From NCBI GenBank assembly GCA_016934515.1, contig JAFGSR010000248.1, forward strand, positions 1-45,111: DNA of 45,111 nucleotides, in the 5' to 3' direction. This DNA is from Sedimentisphaerales bacterium. GTDB taxonomy: Bacteria > Planctomycetota > Phycisphaerae > Sedimentisphaerales > SM23-30. Of the stretch, positions 30,702 through 39,259 are shown piece after piece. How positions within the stretch are numbered: position 1 is the first letter of the stretch; the number at the start of each line of letters is the position of its first letter. The notes under the pieces were generated by a model. The model ran no database searches. It worked only from the letters and a program-made list of their open reading frames with translations, and had not been told where the DNA came from. The position numbers were made by a program, and so were the translations under genes.

Positions 30702-31856
30702 ATGATTAATACGGCTGCCATGACCACAAAAAAAACGAAATTTATAACTAAACTGAAGAATGTTCCTGAATTAACCGCTGACGAACAAAGCATTTTAGCT
30801 GACGTTACCGATAAATTCGAATTCCGGGCGAATGATTACTATCTTTCCCTGATCGACTGGACCGACCTCAACGACCCCATTCGCAAACTTATCATTCCCA
30901 ATCCCTGCGAACTGGACGACTGGGGATCTCTCGATCCTTCCGGTGAAAAAAATTACACCATAATGCCCGGCCTGGAACACAAATACCAATCCACCGCTCT
31001 GTTGCTGGTCAGTAACGTTTGCGGCGGCATCTGTCGCTATTGTTTTCGCAAACGCGTTTTCATCCACAAACAGGATGAAATGCTCTCCAACTTAGAAGCC
31101 GCTATCGATTATCTCCGCCATCACCCCGAAATCTCTAACGTCCTGCTCACCGGTGGCGATCCCCTGATGCTATCTACCAACAAACTCCAAAATATCATCG
31201 AGCCACTGCTCCACATCGACCACATCAAAATCATCCGGCTGGGCACTAAAATCCCTGCCTTTAATCCTTATCGCATCATCGAGGACCATAAACTAATCGA
31301 ACTGATGTCTAGCGTCGGCTCAGCAGGCAAGCAGCTTTATACAATTGTGCATTTCAATCACGCAAACGAATTAACCGATCCGGCCTGCCAGGCTCTCCGG
31401 CTCATTCACAAAACCGGTTCCGTCCTGGCCAACCAAAGCCCCATCATCCGCGGCATCAACGACAATCCTCAAAACCTGGCTGATTTGTTCAATAAACTGT
31501 CGTTCTTCGGCGTGCCCCCTTATTATGTCTTTCAGTGCCGACCCGTCCTGGGCAACAAAGGTTATGTCGTCCCCATCGAGGAGGCCTACCAGACTTTCGA
31601 ACAGGCCAAAGCTCAATGCTCCGGCCTGGCTAAACGCGCCCGATACGCCATGTCTCATGAAACCGGAAAAATTGAAATCGTCGGCCTGACACAAAAGCAC
31701 GTGTACTTCAAATACCACCGTGCCGCCCTCGACGCCGACAACGGAAAATTCATGGTCTTCAATCGAAATCCCGACGCCTATTGGCTCGACGATTACGATC
31801 AACCCATCGAGCAATTCCCGTTGGAAAATTTCCAAAACTCCGAAGCTGTTTTATAA
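30702..31856 (+). CDS. KamA-family radical SAM protein (lysine 2,3-aminomutase-like)
   Basis: 384 residues. The radical SAM iron-sulfur motif is Cys107-x3-Cys111-x2-Cys114 in CGGICRYCFRKR, the KamA/EpmB signature. LLTGGDPLML, IRLGTKIPAFNP and QSPIIRGIND follow, as in lysine 2,3-aminomutases. The likely PLP lysine is Lys323 in SHETGKIEIVG, which replaces the GGGGK segment of clostridial KamA. That marks a separate subfamily whose substrate is not settled, so beta-lysine formation is a guess. Start 30702 (ATG) or 30720 (ATG) are both possible. It converges on hisG and shares a terminator with it. Confidence 0.85.
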   Translation: MINTAAMTTKKTKFITKLKNVPELTADEQSILADVTDKFEFRANDYYLSLIDWTDLNDPIRKLIIPNPCELDDWGSLDPSGEKNYTIMPGLEHKYQSTALLLVSNVCGGICRYCFRKRVFIHKQDEMLSNLEAAIDYLRHHPEISNVLLTGGDPLMLSTNKLQNIIEPLLHIDHIKIIRLGTKIPAFNPYRIIEDHKLIELMSSVGSAGKQLYTIVHFNHANELTDPACQALRLIHKTGSVLANQSPIIRGINDNPQNLADLFNKLSFFGVPPYYVFQCRPVLGNKGYVVPIEEAYQTFEQAKAQCSGLAKRARYAMSHETGKIEIVGLTQKHVYFKYHRAALDADNGKFMVFNRNPDAYWLDDYDQPIEQFPLENFQNSEAVL

Positions 31857-31937: not shown

Positions 31938-32810
31938 TCAGGGTATCACCTGGTTCAACGGATAAGTAAATATCCCGGAAGCTCCGGCTCTTTTCAGCTT
32001 AGGGATCAGATCCCTTGCCGCCGATTCTTCTAAAACAACTTCCAATGCCAGGAATCTCTTGTCCGCCAGCTCGTTTACCGTAGGTGACTTCTCCGATGGC
32101 AAAATCGCCAACGCCGCCTCCAGCTTCTCCGCCGGCAGATTCATCTTCAATCCCACCTTGGCTCGACCCTCGATCGCTCCCTGCAGCAGCATCGCTATCG
32201 ACTCAATCTTCTCCCGCTTAAAATCGTCCTCCCACGCCTGCTTGTTCGCAATCAATCTCGTCGTGCTCGTCATCAACGTATCGATAATCTTCAGATTATT
32301 CGCCCGCAAACTCGATCCCGTCTCGGTTAACTCTACAATCCCGTCCAGCAACCGCGCCTTGACTTCCGTCGCTCCCCAGGAAAATTCCACCTTCACATTC
32401 ACCTTCTTCTCGGCAAAATATTTCTTCGTAACGTTAATCAACTCGGTCGCCACAATCCCGCCTTCCAGGTCCTCAACTTTTTCAATCTTGCCCTCATTCG
32501 GAACCGCCAGTACCCAGTGCGTCGGCCGCGTCGTCGCCTTCGAATACATCAACTCACAAACTTCCACAACATCAGAGCCGTTCTCACAAATCCAGTCCTT
32601 GCCCGTTATCCCCATATCGATCACTCCGTCTTCCACATAACGGCTCATCTCCTGCGCTCGAAACATCACACCTTCCAGCTCCGGATCATCTATCGACGGA
32701 AAAAAACTGCGATTGGACAACTGCACATCAAAACCCGCCCGATTAAACAAATCAAACGTAGAATTCTGCAGCGATCCCTTCGGCAATCCAATTTTCACTT
32801 GCTTACTCAA
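31938..32810 (-). CDS. hisG: ATP phosphoribosyltransferase, long form
   Basis: 290 residues, the length of the HisG_L form that carries its own C-terminal regulatory domain and needs no HisZ. It catalyses the first step of histidine synthesis, joining ATP and PRPP. It begins VKIGLPKGSLQ, and has DMGITGKDW, GGIVATELINVTKKYF and the PRPP loop region DGIVELTETGSSLRAN. The C-terminal ~75 residues match the HisG_C domain (PTVNELADKRFLALEVVLEE). The start is TTG at 32810 with GGGAG upstream, and the frame is closed by a TAA just before it; GTG at 32798 is an alternative. No other his gene is in the window. Confidence 0.93.
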   Translation of the reverse strand: MSKQVKIGLPKGSLQNSTFDLFNRAGFDVQLSNRSFFPSIDDPELEGVMFRAQEMSRYVEDGVIDMGITGKDWICENGSDVVEVCELMYSKATTRPTHWVLAVPNEGKIEKVEDLEGGIVATELINVTKKYFAEKKVNVKVEFSWGATEVKARLLDGIVELTETGSSLRANNLKIIDTLMTSTTRLIANKQAWEDDFKREKIESIAMLLQGAIEGRAKVGLKMNLPAEKLEAALAILPSEKSPTVNELADKRFLALEVVLEESAARDLIPKLKRAGASGIFTYPLNQVIP

Positions 32811-32960: not shown

Positions 32961-33740
32961 TCAAGACTTCTTCTTGGTAGTTCTCTTTTTAGTTTTTTTA
33001 TTGCTGTTGGTCGACTTCTTTTTTGTCACCTTCTTTGCCGACTTCGTTGTCCCAGACTTCTTCGTCTTGGATTTCTTCGTCGTAGCCTTCTTGCTTGCCG
33101 CTTGTTTCTTGGCAACTTTCTTGCTCTTGGCCGGCTTGAAATCATCCGCGTACTGACGCAATAATGCATAAACCTTATGAATCCTGCTCGCCGTAAACTG
33201 CCTCTCCAAAAAACCCTGCACTTCCGCCTCGCTCGCATCCTTGTCCACAACTTCTTCCTCACGCAGCATGGTCAGCATCTGCTCATTTATCGGAAAAGCA
33301 TGACCTCCTAAACCAAACAAGGTCGCCCGCGAAACCATATATGTCGATGAACCATCCAGCGACTCCAGATAAGCCTTGCCTTCACGCTTACCCACATCCT
33401 TCAAATGCTCCAAATCCAGACAATCCTCCTTGCTATATATCGATTGCAACAATGCTAACAACTGTCGCGCCGCATCGCGGCTCTGCGGAAAATTCTTACC
33501 CAAAACTTCCATCACTTCCGAAATTCGATGCACCCGCAACTCATTGTAATCAACACAACTACTACGCAGCTTACTCAGCGCCGTTCGAGCTTTACTTTCG
33601 GTCGTGTACACCGACAAACAAGCCAGCAATATCTCCGTTACAATATCCTGACCTTCCATAACCTCAACTTTACCGCCGGAACGTTGCAAACGATTGCACA
33701 ACTTCTTCAGCTTCGCCCCGTATTCACTGCTATCTTTCAT
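32961..33740 (-). CDS. Degenerate HhH-GPD (endonuclease III-like) protein with histone-like Lys tail
   Basis: 259 residues from ATG at 33740 (GGAG upstream), overlapping the end of rbfA by 11 bases. Residues ~25-200 resemble the helical HhH-GPD/endonuclease III fold (DIVTEILLACLSVYTTESKARTALSKL, FPQSRDAARQLLALLQ, ATLFGLGGHAFPINEQM). At the position of the catalytic Asp (VDTHV in Nth) it reads INEQM (151-155), and no catalytic Lys/GVGxKTA hairpin or FeS cysteine cluster is seen, so glycosylase activity is unlikely. Residues ~203-259 are almost only Lys, Ser, Thr and Ala, like histone H1 tails. A DNA- or RNA-binding role is inferred. Its place in the translation operon is conserved-looking but unexplained. 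Confidence 0.7.
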   Translation of the reverse strand: MKDSSEYGAKLKKLCNRLQRSGGKVEVMEGQDIVTEILLACLSVYTTESKARTALSKLRSSCVDYNELRVHRISEVMEVLGKNFPQSRDAARQLLALLQSIYSKEDCLDLEHLKDVGKREGKAYLESLDGSSTYMVSRATLFGLGGHAFPINEQMLTMLREEEVVDKDASEAEVQGFLERQFTASRIHKVYALLRQYADDFKPAKSKKVAKKQAASKKATTKKSKTKKSGTTKSAKKVTKKKSTNSNKKTKKRTTKKKS

Positions 33741-34149
33741 GCTCAGACTCCGAATCTTCCTCTTCCACGGAAACCTCTTTTTTAACATCCGACTCCGCTA
33801 ATTCCGCTGACACCTGATCAATTAACCGTGATATCTCAAAACCTTTTTGCAGCGAATCATCCAACTCAAACTGCAACGTCGGACAAACTTTCATCGACAA
33901 CCGCTTGGCCAGATGCGACTGAATATATCCGACCGCACTTCTCACGCCCGAAAAACTCAAATCTCGCTGCTTGCCTTCCACTCCTATAATACTCAAAAAC
34001 ACTCGCGCCCGACGCAAGTCTGTCGAACACTCTACCCGGGTAACACTTATTATTCCCGTCACCCGCGGATCATTCAACCGGCTCTGAATTATCTCACTCA
34101 CCGCCGTCTTAATACCCTGGGAAACTTTTTCTAAACGACGTGATACCAT
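33730..34149 (-). CDS. rbfA: Ribosome-binding factor A
   Basis: 139 residues, normal for RbfA, which binds the 30S subunit and helps mature the 5' end of 16S rRNA. It begins SRRLEKVSQGIKTAVSEIIQ and has DPRVTGIISVTRVECSTDLRRARVFLSI and the KH-like core with PTLQFELDDSLQKGFEISRLI. The C-terminal 20 residues are acidic. It follows ylxP by five bases in the nusA-infB operon order known from many bacteria. Confidence 0.93.
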   Translation of the reverse strand: MVSRRLEKVSQGIKTAVSEIIQSRLNDPRVTGIISVTRVECSTDLRRARVFLSIIGVEGKQRDLSFSGVRSAVGYIQSHLAKRLSMKVCPTLQFELDDSLQKGFEISRLIDQVSAELAESDVKKEVSVEEEDSESEHER

Positions 34150-34154
34150 CCTGC

Positions 34155-34436
34155 TTAATACGTCTCCATACTATAATCCACCAGTGTCAACTGTGGAATC
34201 CGCCTCACAAAGTCAACAATCGTACTCAGCGATGACTCCACAAACCGCTTCTCATTAGCAACCGTCGCCACCGCCAGTATCGATGTGCGTATCACGTCGT
34301 TATGCCCCACCTCCGCTATCGACACATTATACTTATTTCCGATCCGGTCTTTCAGGCTCTTAAGCACCCGCCGCTTATCCTTCAAACTCCTCGCCTCAAA
34401 TATGCTGACCTGAAATTTTAACACTCCCACAATCAT
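34155..34436 (-). CDS. ylxP: DUF503 family protein (YlxP-like)
   Basis: 93 residues. The pattern MIVGVLKFQVSIFEARSLKDKRRVLKSLKDRI, then NVSIAEVGHNDV and a C-terminal strand, is the DUF503/YlxP family. In Bacillus the gene lies in the same place between infB and rbfA, and YlxP has been linked to ribosome assembly. It follows infB by 18 bases. Confidence 0.9.
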   Translation of the reverse strand: MIVGVLKFQVSIFEARSLKDKRRVLKSLKDRIGNKYNVSIAEVGHNDVIRTSILAVATVANEKRFVESSLSTIVDFVRRIPQLTLVDYSMETY

Positions 34437-34454: not shown

Positions 34455-37445
34455 CTACTTACCCACCGGCTCCAACTCCAACTTGCGGCTGATCTCCACC
34501 ATCTCATACGCCTCCAGCATATCGCCCTCTTTCAAATCGTCGAAACCATTCAGCTTAATGCCGCATTCAAAACCGTTGCGGGCTTCTGAAATATCATCTT
34601 TGTGCCGCTTGAGCGATTGAATCGTCATGTCATTACGAAGCACAATCCCTTCTCGAACCAGACGCATCTTCGATGACCGCTGTATCACACCTTCGGTAAC
34701 ATAACAGCCCGCAATCGAACCCAAACGCGAAATCTTGAAAACCTGACGTATTTCTACCCGACCCAACTGCTTCTCCTCGATCCGAGGCTTGAGCATCCCT
34801 TCCAACGCCTGCTTGATATCATCGCTAATATTATATATCACCCGGTAATGCCTTATCTGAACACCCTTGGCATCTGCCAGACTCCGGGCGTGCTCATCCG
34901 CCACCACCTGAAAACCAATTATTATCGCATTCGAAGCCTCCGCCAACAACACATCGCTTTCGCTGATACCTCCCACCGCCGAGTGCAAAATCCGCACCGC
35001 AACTTCTGAAGTGTTCATCTCCGTTATCGACTTGCACAAAACATCTACGCTCCCCTGAACGTCCGCCTTCACAATCACATTCAGCTCGCGAATCTCTCCC
35101 GCCGCTATCTCCGTAAACAAATTCTCCAGCGTTACCAGACGACGACGGGCCAAAATCTTCTCCCGCTGTGTACTTCGCTGCTCATCTGCTATCTCCGCCG
35201 CCCGCGGAATGCTCTCCACTACAAAGAACCGATCACCGGATACCGGAACTTCGTCCAGACCCGTTATTTCAACCGGTGTCGCAGGACCCGCCTGCTTCAT
35301 CGACTGGTTATTGCTCCCCGTCATCGATCGCACCCGACCGTGACTGCTGCCGCTCACAATTATATCTCCCGTCTTCAGCGTTCCCTGCTTAACCAGCAAA
35401 CGGGCCACCACCCCGCGACCAATCGCCATCTCCGATTCCACCACCCATCCGGTCGCCGAACATTCTACCGGAGCCTTCAGTTGACGCAACTCCGCTACAT
35501 AATCCAAATGCTCAATCAGATCGCTTATTCCTTCCCCGGTCGTCGCGCTGGTCTTGACCACTTCCGTATCACCGCCCCATTCCGTCGGCACTAGGTCATG
35601 CTCCGCCAGTTGACCAAACACCCGATTCACATCAACATCCGGCAAATCAATCTTGTTCAAAGCCACTACAATCGGCACCCCCGCCGCCTTGGCATGACTT
35701 ATCGCTTCTTCCGTCTGCGGCATCACCCCGTCATCCGCCGCTACCACCAACACCACAATATCCGTCATATTGGCACCCCGCGCACGCATCGCCGTAAAAG
35801 CCTTGTGACCCGGAGTGTCCAGAAACGCCACACGACGCTCACCGTCATCATACAAATATGAACCAATATGCTGCGTTATACCACCCGCTTCACCCGATGC
35901 CACACTCGATTTGCGAATCTGATCCAGCAATGATGTCTTGCCGTGATCAACATGACCCAAAAACGCCACTACCGGCGGACGCGCTTGCAACTGCTCCTCT
36001 ACAACCTCCTTGTCAACTTCCTCTCGCAACTGATCCAGAAGCAGCACTTTCGCTTCAACCGTCAATTCCACCCCAAGTTCCAATGCCACCGCCTCGGCGG
36101 CCTCCGTGTCAATTATCTGGTTCACCGTCGCCATTACCCCCATCTGCATCAGCTTACTCATAATCTCCGCCGCTCGCACGCCAATCGCTCCGGACAAATC
36201 CTTCACCGTAATCGGCTCCTTGACCGTCGCTTTCTCAATCCGCACAACCTGCCTGGTACTACCCTGACTTGTACTACGCTCCTCATCCTTGGCCATCCGA
36301 CGGGCTCGACTGGCCAATTTACCCGCTCCTGCCGCCGCCAGACGCGCCTGACGCTCCTGCAAGTCACGGTCTCCTCGTTGATGGGCGGTACCTATCTGTA
36401 AGTCGCCCGCTTCAGAACCTCGACCTCGTCGGCCGGTTCGTGACTTGCTTCGCTTGCCCACCGAACGAATTGGCTTTTCCATATCGTCCAGACTCGCATG
36501 ACGACTACCTTTCTTGCCCTTACCAACTGACACCGAACCAAAATTCTGCAGATCCTTGTCCGATGTTTTCTCGCCTGTCGCCTTATCCTTACGCGGCGGA
36601 CGTGGGGTACCTCGACCTATATATTCCGGTAACACATCCGGCCGCTCCACCCGAACCACCTGCGGACCCGATAGCTTCGCCGGCTCCGGAACATGATCTA
36701 CCTTTCCTATCTTCTTTACTTTTCGCTTAATAGAAGGATGCGAAAATCCCGGCGCCATCCGAGGTTGCTCTGGCTTTTGTTCTTCCTCATCGCCAACCTC
36801 AGCCGCTGCCTCTCTCGCTCCCTTTTCAGCTTGAAGCTCCTCTGCTCCTGTAACTTCAGCAACCGACTTACTCGCCCCGCTCGCAGGGGCCGCCTCTCCT
36901 GCTGCTTCTTCAGCCGCCGCTATACCACCATCCTCAACTTCCGCTAGATCCTTCGGACTTTTACGCTTGGGTTTTGACAACTTGGACTTGGCTTTTGCCT
37001 TGACCTTCATCTTGGACTTAACTTTGGCGGCTGGGGCCTCTTCTACTGCTGTTTCAGCAACAAATCCATCAACCTCTTGACCAACCTTAGCAACTGCCGC
37101 TTCAACCTCAACCGGTTCACTCACTTCTTCCGCCACAGTTGCTGCTGTTGGCAATTCCGCAACCGCCACCTCGCCTTCCGTCGTTGATACTTCTTCCGAA
37201 TCAGACTTCTTCTTGCGCTTGCGAGTCTTCTTGGTACGCACCTTCGCCAAATCGACTGACTCCGTCGTTTCCACCGTCAAACTTTCACCACCCTCGGTAA
37301 ACCATTCCCGAATGGTCGCTTCCAGACCCGCCGATAGCGTGCTCATGTGATTCTTAATGCTCAGACCTTCAGCCTGACACTTAGCAACTATCGCCGTGCT
37401 TTTGACTCCCAGTTCTTTCGCTAATTGGTGGACGCGTCTCGCCAC
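34455..37445 (-). CDS. infB: Translation initiation factor IF-2
   Basis: 996 residues. IF-2 is the GTPase that brings initiator tRNA to the 30S subunit and promotes subunit joining. The N-terminus ([25 protein letters not shown]) is the IF-2 N-terminal domain. Residues ~60-415 are a long low-complexity stretch rich in Glu, Ala, Val and Lys, then basic. A second N-terminal-type domain lies at ~415-470. The G domain follows, with GHVDHGKT beginning at residue 497, DTPGHKAF and NKIDLP. Domains II-IV complete the C-terminus. The start is GTG at 37445 with a strong GGAGG six bases upstream. The 139-base gap after nusA holds a small GGCAG/CTGCC hairpin but no ylxR or rpl7Ae-like gene. Confidence 0.96.
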
Positions 37446-37584: not shown

Positions 37585-39072
37585 CTATTCTTTCGCTTTA
37601 TCCTCTGAATCCTGCTCTTCCGGATCAACATCTTTCGAAACCGCTTCCTCCGCAACAGCATCTTCTGATTCAACACTTTCCGAACCTTCTTCTAACACTT
37701 CCGGTTCTTCGGAATCTTCTTCCGCTAACTGCTCCGACGCTTCATCAGCCGCCGTTACATCTGCCGCTTTAGCTTCCACATCTCCTGCCGCTTCACCTGA
37801 AACTTCATCCACCGATTCGCCAATATCAATCGTACCGCTGGCTAAACTCGATAAAACCGAAGCCGCCGGTTTTTTATCGCTCACCTCATCCGCCAGCACC
37901 GCTTGCGCCGTGCTCTGCTCCTTCAACGTCGCCTGATGACGTGCTTCTTTCGACGCCGACCGCACCATTTCCAACGCCAACGCTTCCTCCAGCTCCAACG
38001 ACTGCATCAAAGGCTCCGGCCCCACCTCTTCCATATCCAGCACCGAAACAATCCCCAACGCCAGCACCTTGTCAATCAACGTATCATCCACACCTTCCAC
38101 GCTGCGCAGCGTCCGGGATAAAATATCCATCGATTCACTGTATTCCCTGGGTGTCAAAATGTCGATATCCCAGTTAGTCAACCGCGCCGCCAACCGAACA
38201 TTCTGACCGCGCTTGCCAATCGCCAGCGACAACTGATCCTCCGCCACCACTACCGTCGAACGATTCAACTCAAAACACAACGCAATGTCCCGAACCTCCG
38301 CCGGACGCAACGCGTTGCCTATCAGCACCTGCGACGATTCATTCCAACGCACAATATCTATCTTCTCCCCGCCCAGCTCATCCACAATATTCTTGATCCT
38401 GCTCCCTCGCACTCCCACGCACGCACCCACCGCGTCCACCTTCGTGTCCGAACTGATTACCGCCACCTTACTGCGATAACCCGCTTCACGAGCCAACGCC
38501 TTTATCTCAATAATCTTCTCCGCCACTTCCGGAACTTCCTGCTCAAACAACCGCTGAATAAACTCCGGATGCGTCCGCGACAAAATAATCTTCACCTGGT
38601 TCGGCGCTTCCTTCACCTCAATTATCACCGCCCGAACCCGCTCACCCGGATGATGCGTCTCGCCCGGTATCTGTTCGCTCCGCGGCAAAATCGCTTCCGC
38701 CCGCGACAAATTCACCACCGTCGTCCCACCTTCAAATCGCGCCACCGACCCGGTTACCAACTCACCAATCCGCTCCTGGAACTCCGTATATATGCTGCCC
38801 CGCTCATCTTCTCGTAATTTCTGAATCATCACCTGCTTTGCCGTCTGGGCCGGAATCCTACCCAACTTGCGAATATCAATCTGCTCACCGTTGACAAATA
38901 CATAAAACTCTCCCGATTCGCGATCAATCTGAACTTCCACACCCTCAGCTACACCAAAATGTTTACGCGTCGCCGAGGCCATCGCCGCTTCCAGATCAAC
39001 AAAAATGCTCTCGCTGTCTATATTCTTATCCCGAGCCATTCCATCTACGATTCGCAACAATTCTTGATTCAT
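37585..39072 (-). CDS. nusA: Transcription termination/antitermination factor NusA
   Basis: 495 residues from ATG at 39072 (AAAGGA upstream; a TTG one codon earlier is less likely). NusA binds RNA polymerase and controls pausing and termination. The N-terminal polymerase-binding domain covers ~1-100, the S1 domain ~105-170 (GELVTGSVARFEGG), and two KH domains ~200-305 (GVRGSRIKNIVDELGGEKIDIV and LAIGKRGQNVRLAA). A helix-hairpin-helix-like segment follows at ~325-380. The last ~100 residues are very acidic and low-complexity. A small tandem repeat CTGCCGTTC (39136-39157) lies in its leader. rimP is not upstream. Confidence 0.96.
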   Translation of the reverse strand: MNQELLRIVDGMARDKNIDSESIFVDLEAAMASATRKHFGVAEGVEVQIDRESGEFYVFVNGEQIDIRKLGRIPAQTAKQVMIQKLREDERGSIYTEFQERIGELVTGSVARFEGGTTVVNLSRAEAILPRSEQIPGETHHPGERVRAVIIEVKEAPNQVKIILSRTHPEFIQRLFEQEVPEVAEKIIEIKALAREAGYRSKVAVISSDTKVDAVGACVGVRGSRIKNIVDELGGEKIDIVRWNESSQVLIGNALRPAEVRDIALCFELNRSTVVVAEDQLSLAIGKRGQNVRLAARLTNWDIDILTPREYSESMDILSRTLRSVEGVDDTLIDKVLALGIVSVLDMEEVGPEPLMQSLELEEALALEMVRSASKEARHQATLKEQSTAQAVLADEVSDKKPAASVLSSLASGTIDIGESVDEVSGEAAGDVEAKAADVTAADEASEQLAEEDSEEPEVLEEGSESVESEDAVAEEAVSKDVDPEEQDSEDKAKE

Positions 39073-39259
39073 CAACCAATATCCTTTTATCCTGGAGTAC
39101 CAAGCTACTTCTCAAAAACTTAGCTGCTCAATATTCTGCCGTTCCTGCCGTTCCTGCTCAACCAAAAGCACTCAAATCAAATCTCTTAATTACTCAACCA
39201 TCGGTCTGTCTGAGTTAATTATCTCTTACCCAACCAACTCTTACACTTCCTTATAAAAC

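What the first reader, a model, noticed from the sequence alone, without database searches (positions are those of the whole stretch)
32961..33740. Inactive-looking HhH-GPD protein with a histone-H1-like tail in the nusA-infB operon
The protein keeps the helical shape of endonuclease III but lacks the catalytic Asp, Lys and FeS cluster, and ends in ~55 residues of Lys/Ser/Thr/Ala. It overlaps rbfA, so it is translated with ribosome-assembly factors. A repair fold recast as a DNA- or RNA-binding protein in a translation operon would be new to me.
Basis: partly seen in the sequence, partly recalled or inferred. Interest (0 to 1): 0.6.

Follow-up and report, generated by a model that had tools for sequence, protein, structure and literature searches.

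The report
Enzyme-dead EndoIII-like protein beside rbfA
Planctomycete bacteria carry, usually right after the ribosome-assembly gene rbfA, an undescribed protein that descends from a DNA-repair enzyme but has lost its active site and gained a lysine-rich tail, so an old repair fold seems to have been turned into a non-enzymatic binding protein.

Summary
The gene at 32961-33740 (minus strand, 259 aa) overlaps rbfA by 11 nt, has the endonuclease III fold (AlphaFold pLDDT 93.6; Foldseek best hits D. radiodurans EndoIII-1/-3 and ROS1, E down to 2e-7), lacks Lys120, Asp138, Gln41, the second hairpin glycine and the 4-Cys cluster, and ends in 58 residues with 26 Lys. It is not a local oddity: all 41 near-complete genomes of its order have it, and orthologues are widespread in Planctomycetota, forming one clade apart from the true Nth/MutY proteins tested. 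In nearly all Phycisphaerae and in the Planctomycetia-like members read it follows rbfA. The family is marked by a near-invariant [FY]VDxN[DE]hRV motif rather than by glycosylase residues. Deep-branching members keep the Fe-S cysteines and tie the family to Nth (profile E 9e-25). One correction: the Asp is lost in this order but kept in sister orders and classes, so loss was stepwise. Best reading: a repurposed, probably non-catalytic protein with a partner-binding core and a nucleic-acid-binding tail; a ribosomal role is favoured over a nucleoid role, but neither is shown. I found no published description and no Pfam family.

The parts
32961..33740 (-). the gene: EndoIII-derived, catalytically degenerate protein, 259 aa (stop codon 32961-32963)
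   Evidence: ORF and translation; AF2 plus Foldseek; 41/41 near-complete genomes of the order
33138..33740 (-). folded HhH-GPD-like core, residues 1-201, twelve helices, net charge about -3
   Evidence: AF2 pLDDT 93.6; charge
32964..33137 (-). basic tail, residues 202-259, 26 Lys, charge about +27
33531..33557 (-). family signature CVDYNELRV (residues 62-70); consensus [FY]VDxN[DE]hRV
   Evidence: Asp64, Asn66, Arg69, Val70 nearly invariant in four groups
33333..33359 (-). degenerate HhH hairpin LDGSSTYMV (residues 128-136), aligned with LPGVGRKTA of E. coli Nth; Lys120 -> Tyr134, Gly118 -> Ser132
33279..33305 (-). GHAFPINEQ (residues 146-154); Asn152 takes the place of the catalytic Asp138
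33730..33740 (-). 11-nt overlap of the end of rbfA and the start of the gene
   Evidence: sequence; -11 and -4 overlaps recur in relatives
33730..34149 (-). rbfA
   Evidence: Pfam RBFA 3e-27
34155..34436 (-). DUF503 gene
   Evidence: Pfam 5e-28
34455..37445 (-). infB (IF2)
   Evidence: ORF translation; relatives' infB found with it
37585..39075 (-). nusA
   Evidence: ORF translation, not tested by a family search
31938..32810 (-). hisG, next gene downstream; also downstream in most Phycisphaerae
   Evidence: Pfam HisG 5e-45

Best explanation
The protein is a planctomycete pseudo-EndoIII: an old duplicate of an endonuclease III of the DR2438/ROS1-like branch that stopped being a glycosylase and became a non-enzymatic binding protein. 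The folded core, whose catalytic pocket, DNA-probing Gln and hairpin glycine have degenerated, now presents a different conserved surface (VDxN[DE]hRV) to a fixed partner. The disordered lysine-rich tail supplies nucleic-acid affinity. Because the gene is closely coupled to rbfA behind infB in the well-covered classes, the likeliest target is nascent rRNA or a 30S precursor, with the tail as an electrostatic tether. Shown: EndoIII ancestry, loss of hallmark residues, family signature, tail, rbfA linkage. Inferred: lack of activity, partner binding, RNA as target. My odds: EndoIII ancestry 0.97; no glycosylase activity in this order 0.9; non-enzymatic tether 0.6; ribosome or rRNA as its site 0.4-0.45.
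For: Fold; deep-branching relatives independently give the same fold. Ancestry chain: own-order profile vs deep members E 5e-39, deep members vs true Nth E 9e-25 including the Cys cluster, own order vs Nth 3.6e-6. Family is one clade against 17 true GPD proteins (SH-aLRT 99). The Lys120 position is Phe or Tyr in 95/95 own-order, 19/19 other Phycisphaerae and 8/8 Planctomycetia-like sequences. Fe-S cysteines: 0 in the order, 23/31 in deep members. Signature: Arg69 1.00, Asp64 0.99, Asn66 0.97 mean frequency over four groups. The core has lost net positive charge (medians: Nth +6, deep +6, own order 0, other Phycisphaerae -4, Planctomycetia-like -5.5) while tails are basic (144 of 156 at +5 or more). 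Placement next after rbfA on the same strand in 125 distinct loci. The genome has a separate intact Nth (L001) and a second GPD protein (L002).
Against: No binding or expression data. Operon position is weak evidence for function: in many deep-branching members the neighbours are hisG, ffh, pgi or others. H1-like tails are best known from DNA-binding proteins. The Asp is fully conserved in sister groups, which keeps a monofunctional glycosylase possible there. Net charge is not a surface map.
Confidence: 0.45

Rival explanations
1. A nucleoid protein. The degenerate EndoIII core still recognises DNA shape without cutting, and the H1-like tail compacts the chromosome, helping to make the condensed nucleoid typical of planctomycetes.
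For: Fold of a DNA-binding superfamily; H1-like tail nearly exclusive to this gene among its neighbours. DrEndoIII3 binds damaged DNA strongly without detectable activity (PMC9268735). Gemmata nucleoids show bead-like particles, and the authors expected unknown condensing proteins (PMC3440768).
Against: The core has lost net positive charge and the hairpin glycine in the derived classes. Placement with rbfA and infB is unusual for a nucleoid protein. No member found in one planctomycete family of seven genomes.
Confidence: 0.28
2. An active but unusual monofunctional DNA (or RNA) glycosylase that needs neither Lys nor a cluster.
For: Asp conserved in 19/19 other Phycisphaerae and 8/8 Planctomycetia-like members. 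MutY-type enzymes work without the Lys (established knowledge). Nearest named family is a monofunctional glycosylase, NF053634.
Against: In the window's order the Asp is Thr, Asn, His or Ser in 91/95. The probing Gln and the hairpin GVG are lost and the Lys position is aromatic. The conserved residues lie elsewhere.
Confidence: 0.12
3. A lesion sensor: it binds damaged DNA without cutting and recruits repair, like DrEndoIII3 or S. pombe Mag2.
For: Structural closeness to DrEndoIII3 (TM 0.80) and Mag2 among the hits; DrEndoIII3 mutants have an oxidative-stress phenotype (PMC10523315).
Against: DrEndoIII3 keeps Asp, Lys and the cluster (PMC9268735). Here the residues that contact a flipped base are lost.
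Confidence: 0.1

Closest known systems
D. radiodurans EndoIII-1 (DR2438; NF053634) and EndoIII-3 (PDB 4uob)
   Same: same fold and nearest sequence relatives of solved structure; EndoIII-3 also lacks detectable EndoIII activity
   Different: they keep catalytic Asp and Lys and a [4Fe-4S] cluster; no lysine-rich C-terminal tail or rbfA linkage is described for them in the papers read
E. coli endonuclease III (Nth)
   Same: fold; deep family members align over the whole length including the cysteine cluster
   Different: Nth has Gln41, GVG hairpin, Lys120, Asp138 and four cysteines; of these the window protein keeps only the first hairpin Gly
Plant ROS1 glycosylase domain
   Same: shares the VDW...R stretch and the fold
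   Different: ROS1 is an active 5mC glycosylase/lyase; it lacks the N[DE] of the family motif
Histone H1-like lysine-rich bacterial proteins (for example chlamydial HctA/HctB)
   Same: Lys/Ser/Thr/Ala tail composition
   Different: those lack a folded EndoIII core; resemblance is by composition only and recalled, not tested

Membership tests
HhH-GPD fold superfamily | all-helical two-domain EndoIII fold | tested here: met
   AF2 plus Foldseek
HhH-GPD fold superfamily | match to Pfam PF00730 above cut-off | tested here: not met
   no hit for the window protein or any of 30 order members; 1 of 19 deep members, weakly
Endonuclease III (Nth), functional | catalytic Lys120 | tested here: not met
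   Tyr134; Phe or Tyr in all 95 distinct own-order sequences
Endonuclease III / MutY glycosylases, functional | catalytic Asp138 | tested here: not met
   Asn152 here; kept in sister groups
Endonuclease III (Nth), functional | [4Fe-4S] cluster cysteines | tested here: not met
   0 in the order; 23/31 in deep members
Endonuclease III (Nth), functional | glycosylase/AP lyase activity | not testable with these tools
   needs purified protein
NF053634 monofunctional glycosylase (DR2438) | score above the curated cut-off (400 bits) | tested here: not met
   24.6 bits; deep member L150 71.7 bits
Family proposed here (rbfA-linked pseudo-EndoIII) | VDxN[DE]hRV signature and clade apart from true GPDs | tested here: met
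Histone H1-like nucleoid proteins | DNA binding and compaction by a lysine-rich chain | not testable with these tools
   composition only

The most novel reading that the evidence does not exclude
A DNA-repair enzyme fold was recruited once, early in Planctomycetota, as a non-enzymatic ribosome-assembly or rRNA-binding factor co-translated with RbfA, with the Fe-S cluster and the catalytic Asp discarded stepwise in different lineages.
Probability: 0.35. Interest if true: 0.85.

Novelty: new variant of a known kind. Interest (0 to 1): 0.62.

Why it matters
It is a widely conserved, housekeeping-like planctomycete gene without a Pfam family or a published description that I could find, sitting beside one of the best-studied ribosome assembly genes. 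If it acts on ribosomes, a repair fold has moved into translation; if it acts on DNA, it is a candidate for the unknown proteins behind the condensed planctomycete nucleoid. The graded series (cluster and charge kept, cluster lost, Asp lost) makes the route from enzyme to non-enzyme directly readable.

Tried and rejected
Pfam gave no usable hit. The first single-sequence genome-contig scan found nothing; the profile scan found 161 relatives, of which the best 80 are listed. Other phyla could not be searched: a locus cannot be the centre of the genome search, so restriction to Planctomycetota is suggested by the listed hits, not proved. The raw phylum tally (315/392) was not taken as a count of orthologues, because a true GPD protein (L142) also scores. 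Twenty-two genomes missed or barely matched by the first profile were re-searched with the deep profile: three carry divergent members, the other loci read hold only true GPDs. Domain fusions were looked for in long ORFs: none, only long tails. An acidic RbfA tail as electrostatic partner was considered: 69/125 are acidic, but no control was made. Literature searches for a planctomycete rbfA-linked EndoIII found none.

Full report
Observation. The ORF at 32961-33740 (minus) encodes 259 aa and overlaps rbfA by 11 nt. Order on the strand: nusA, infB, DUF503, rbfA, this gene, hisG. The protein has two parts: a 201-residue core of charge about -3 and a 58-residue tail with 26 Lys and charge about +27. 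The tail is not a general habit of the neighbourhood: of 487 ORFs in 80 related loci, 45 have 12 or more K/R in the last 30 residues and 44 of these are this gene.

Fold and ancestry. AF2 with 30 relatives gives mean pLDDT 93.6. Foldseek finds D. radiodurans EndoIII-1 and EndoIII-3, Arabidopsis ROS1, then OGG, Nth and MutY (E down to 2e-7). Sequence evidence alone is thin, but intermediate sequences close the gap: the order profile matches deep planctomycete members at E 5e-39, these match true Nth at 9e-25 over their whole length including the cysteine cluster, and they model as the same fold. In a tree with 17 true GPD proteins the 55 family members tested form one side of a branch with SH-aLRT 99, and sub-clades follow the taxonomic groups (quick method, some long branches).

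What was lost. Aligned with E. coli Nth, the window protein has Tyr for Lys120, Asn for Asp138, Tyr for Gln41 and Ser for Gly118, and no cluster cysteines. Across the order the Lys position is Phe or Tyr in all 95 distinct sequences, and the Asp position is Thr 69, Asn 15, His 5, Asp 4, Ser 2. In deep members it varies, but 23 of 31 keep the four cysteines. So the cluster and the Asp were lost at different times. Thr, Asn, Ser and Asp are all good helix N-caps, so this position may be kept for structure (inference).

What is kept. The most conserved columns over four groups are Arg69, Asp64, Leu98, Asn66, Pro150 and Val70; the motif is [FY]VDxN[DE]hRV. ROS1 shares the VDW and R, so part of the motif is inherited; the N[DE] looks particular to the family. 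Median net core charge goes from +6 in true Nth and in deep members to 0 in the order, -4 in other Phycisphaerae and -5.5 in Planctomycetia-like members (order versus Nth Mann-Whitney p 8e-6, relatedness ignored). This suggests that in the derived classes nucleic-acid affinity moved from core to tail.

Distribution and context. The gene is in 56/59 relatives and 41/41 near-complete genomes among them. A phylum sample gave 315/392 profile matches, an upper bound for orthologues because true GPDs can score. Of the distant loci read one by one nearly all carry the motif. One planctomycete family (7 genomes, 96-100% complete) shows only true GPDs in the loci read. The gene is the next one after rbfA in 95 own-order, 19 other Phycisphaerae and 11 other distinct loci, often with a 4- or 11-nt overlap. 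Deep members without rbfA nearby lie next to hisG, ffh, pgi or unrelated genes. Named records are mostly Phycisphaerae and Sedimentisphaerales MAGs, so the window most likely comes from a member of or near Sedimentisphaerales. The own genome has a normal Nth (L001, with Lys, Asp and cysteines) and a second GPD protein (L002), so classic repair is covered elsewhere.

Mechanism and rivals. Shown: ancestry, loss of hallmarks, conserved motif, tail, linkage. Inferred: no glycosylase activity, a partner at the motif, tail binding nucleic acid, ribosome as site. [quoted passage not shown]), though it keeps Asp, Lys and cluster. A nucleoid role stays open, since the Gemmata nucleoid is condensed and its condensing proteins are unknown (PMC3440768).

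Verdict. Its own test for refutation is half met: homologues with an intact Asp exist, but without any activity data. I rate this as a new variant within the HhH-GPD superfamily.

Noticed in passing
L142 (6534 bp), minus-strand ORF of about 600 aa: An EndoIII-like domain (Asp and four cysteines kept, Tyr at the Lys position) is fused to what reads as a cytosine DNA methyltransferase; possibly a mismatch-repair glycosylase joined to its methylase.
   Followed up: no
L002: The window's own genome has a second true GPD protein whose catalytic Lys is replaced by Glu (GIGRETADS) while Asp is kept; a relative (L207) is in another planctomycete family.
   Followed up: partly
33730-34149 and relatives: RbfA has an acidic C-terminus in many of these genomes (69 of 125 with net acidity of 5 or more in the last 25 residues), next to the basic-tailed protein; no control was made.
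   Followed up: partly
30702-31856 (+): ORF with a radical-SAM-like CGGICRYCFRKR motif, resembling a lysine 2,3-aminomutase, convergent with hisG.
   Followed up: no
L155, L156, L239: Some family members carry very long charged tails (coiled-coil-like Glu/Arg/Ala repeats followed by KKAAAKK-type repeats).
   Followed up: no
L156, L157, L164, L166, L180: In five deep-branching genomes ffh (SRP54) lies near the family gene.
   Followed up: partly
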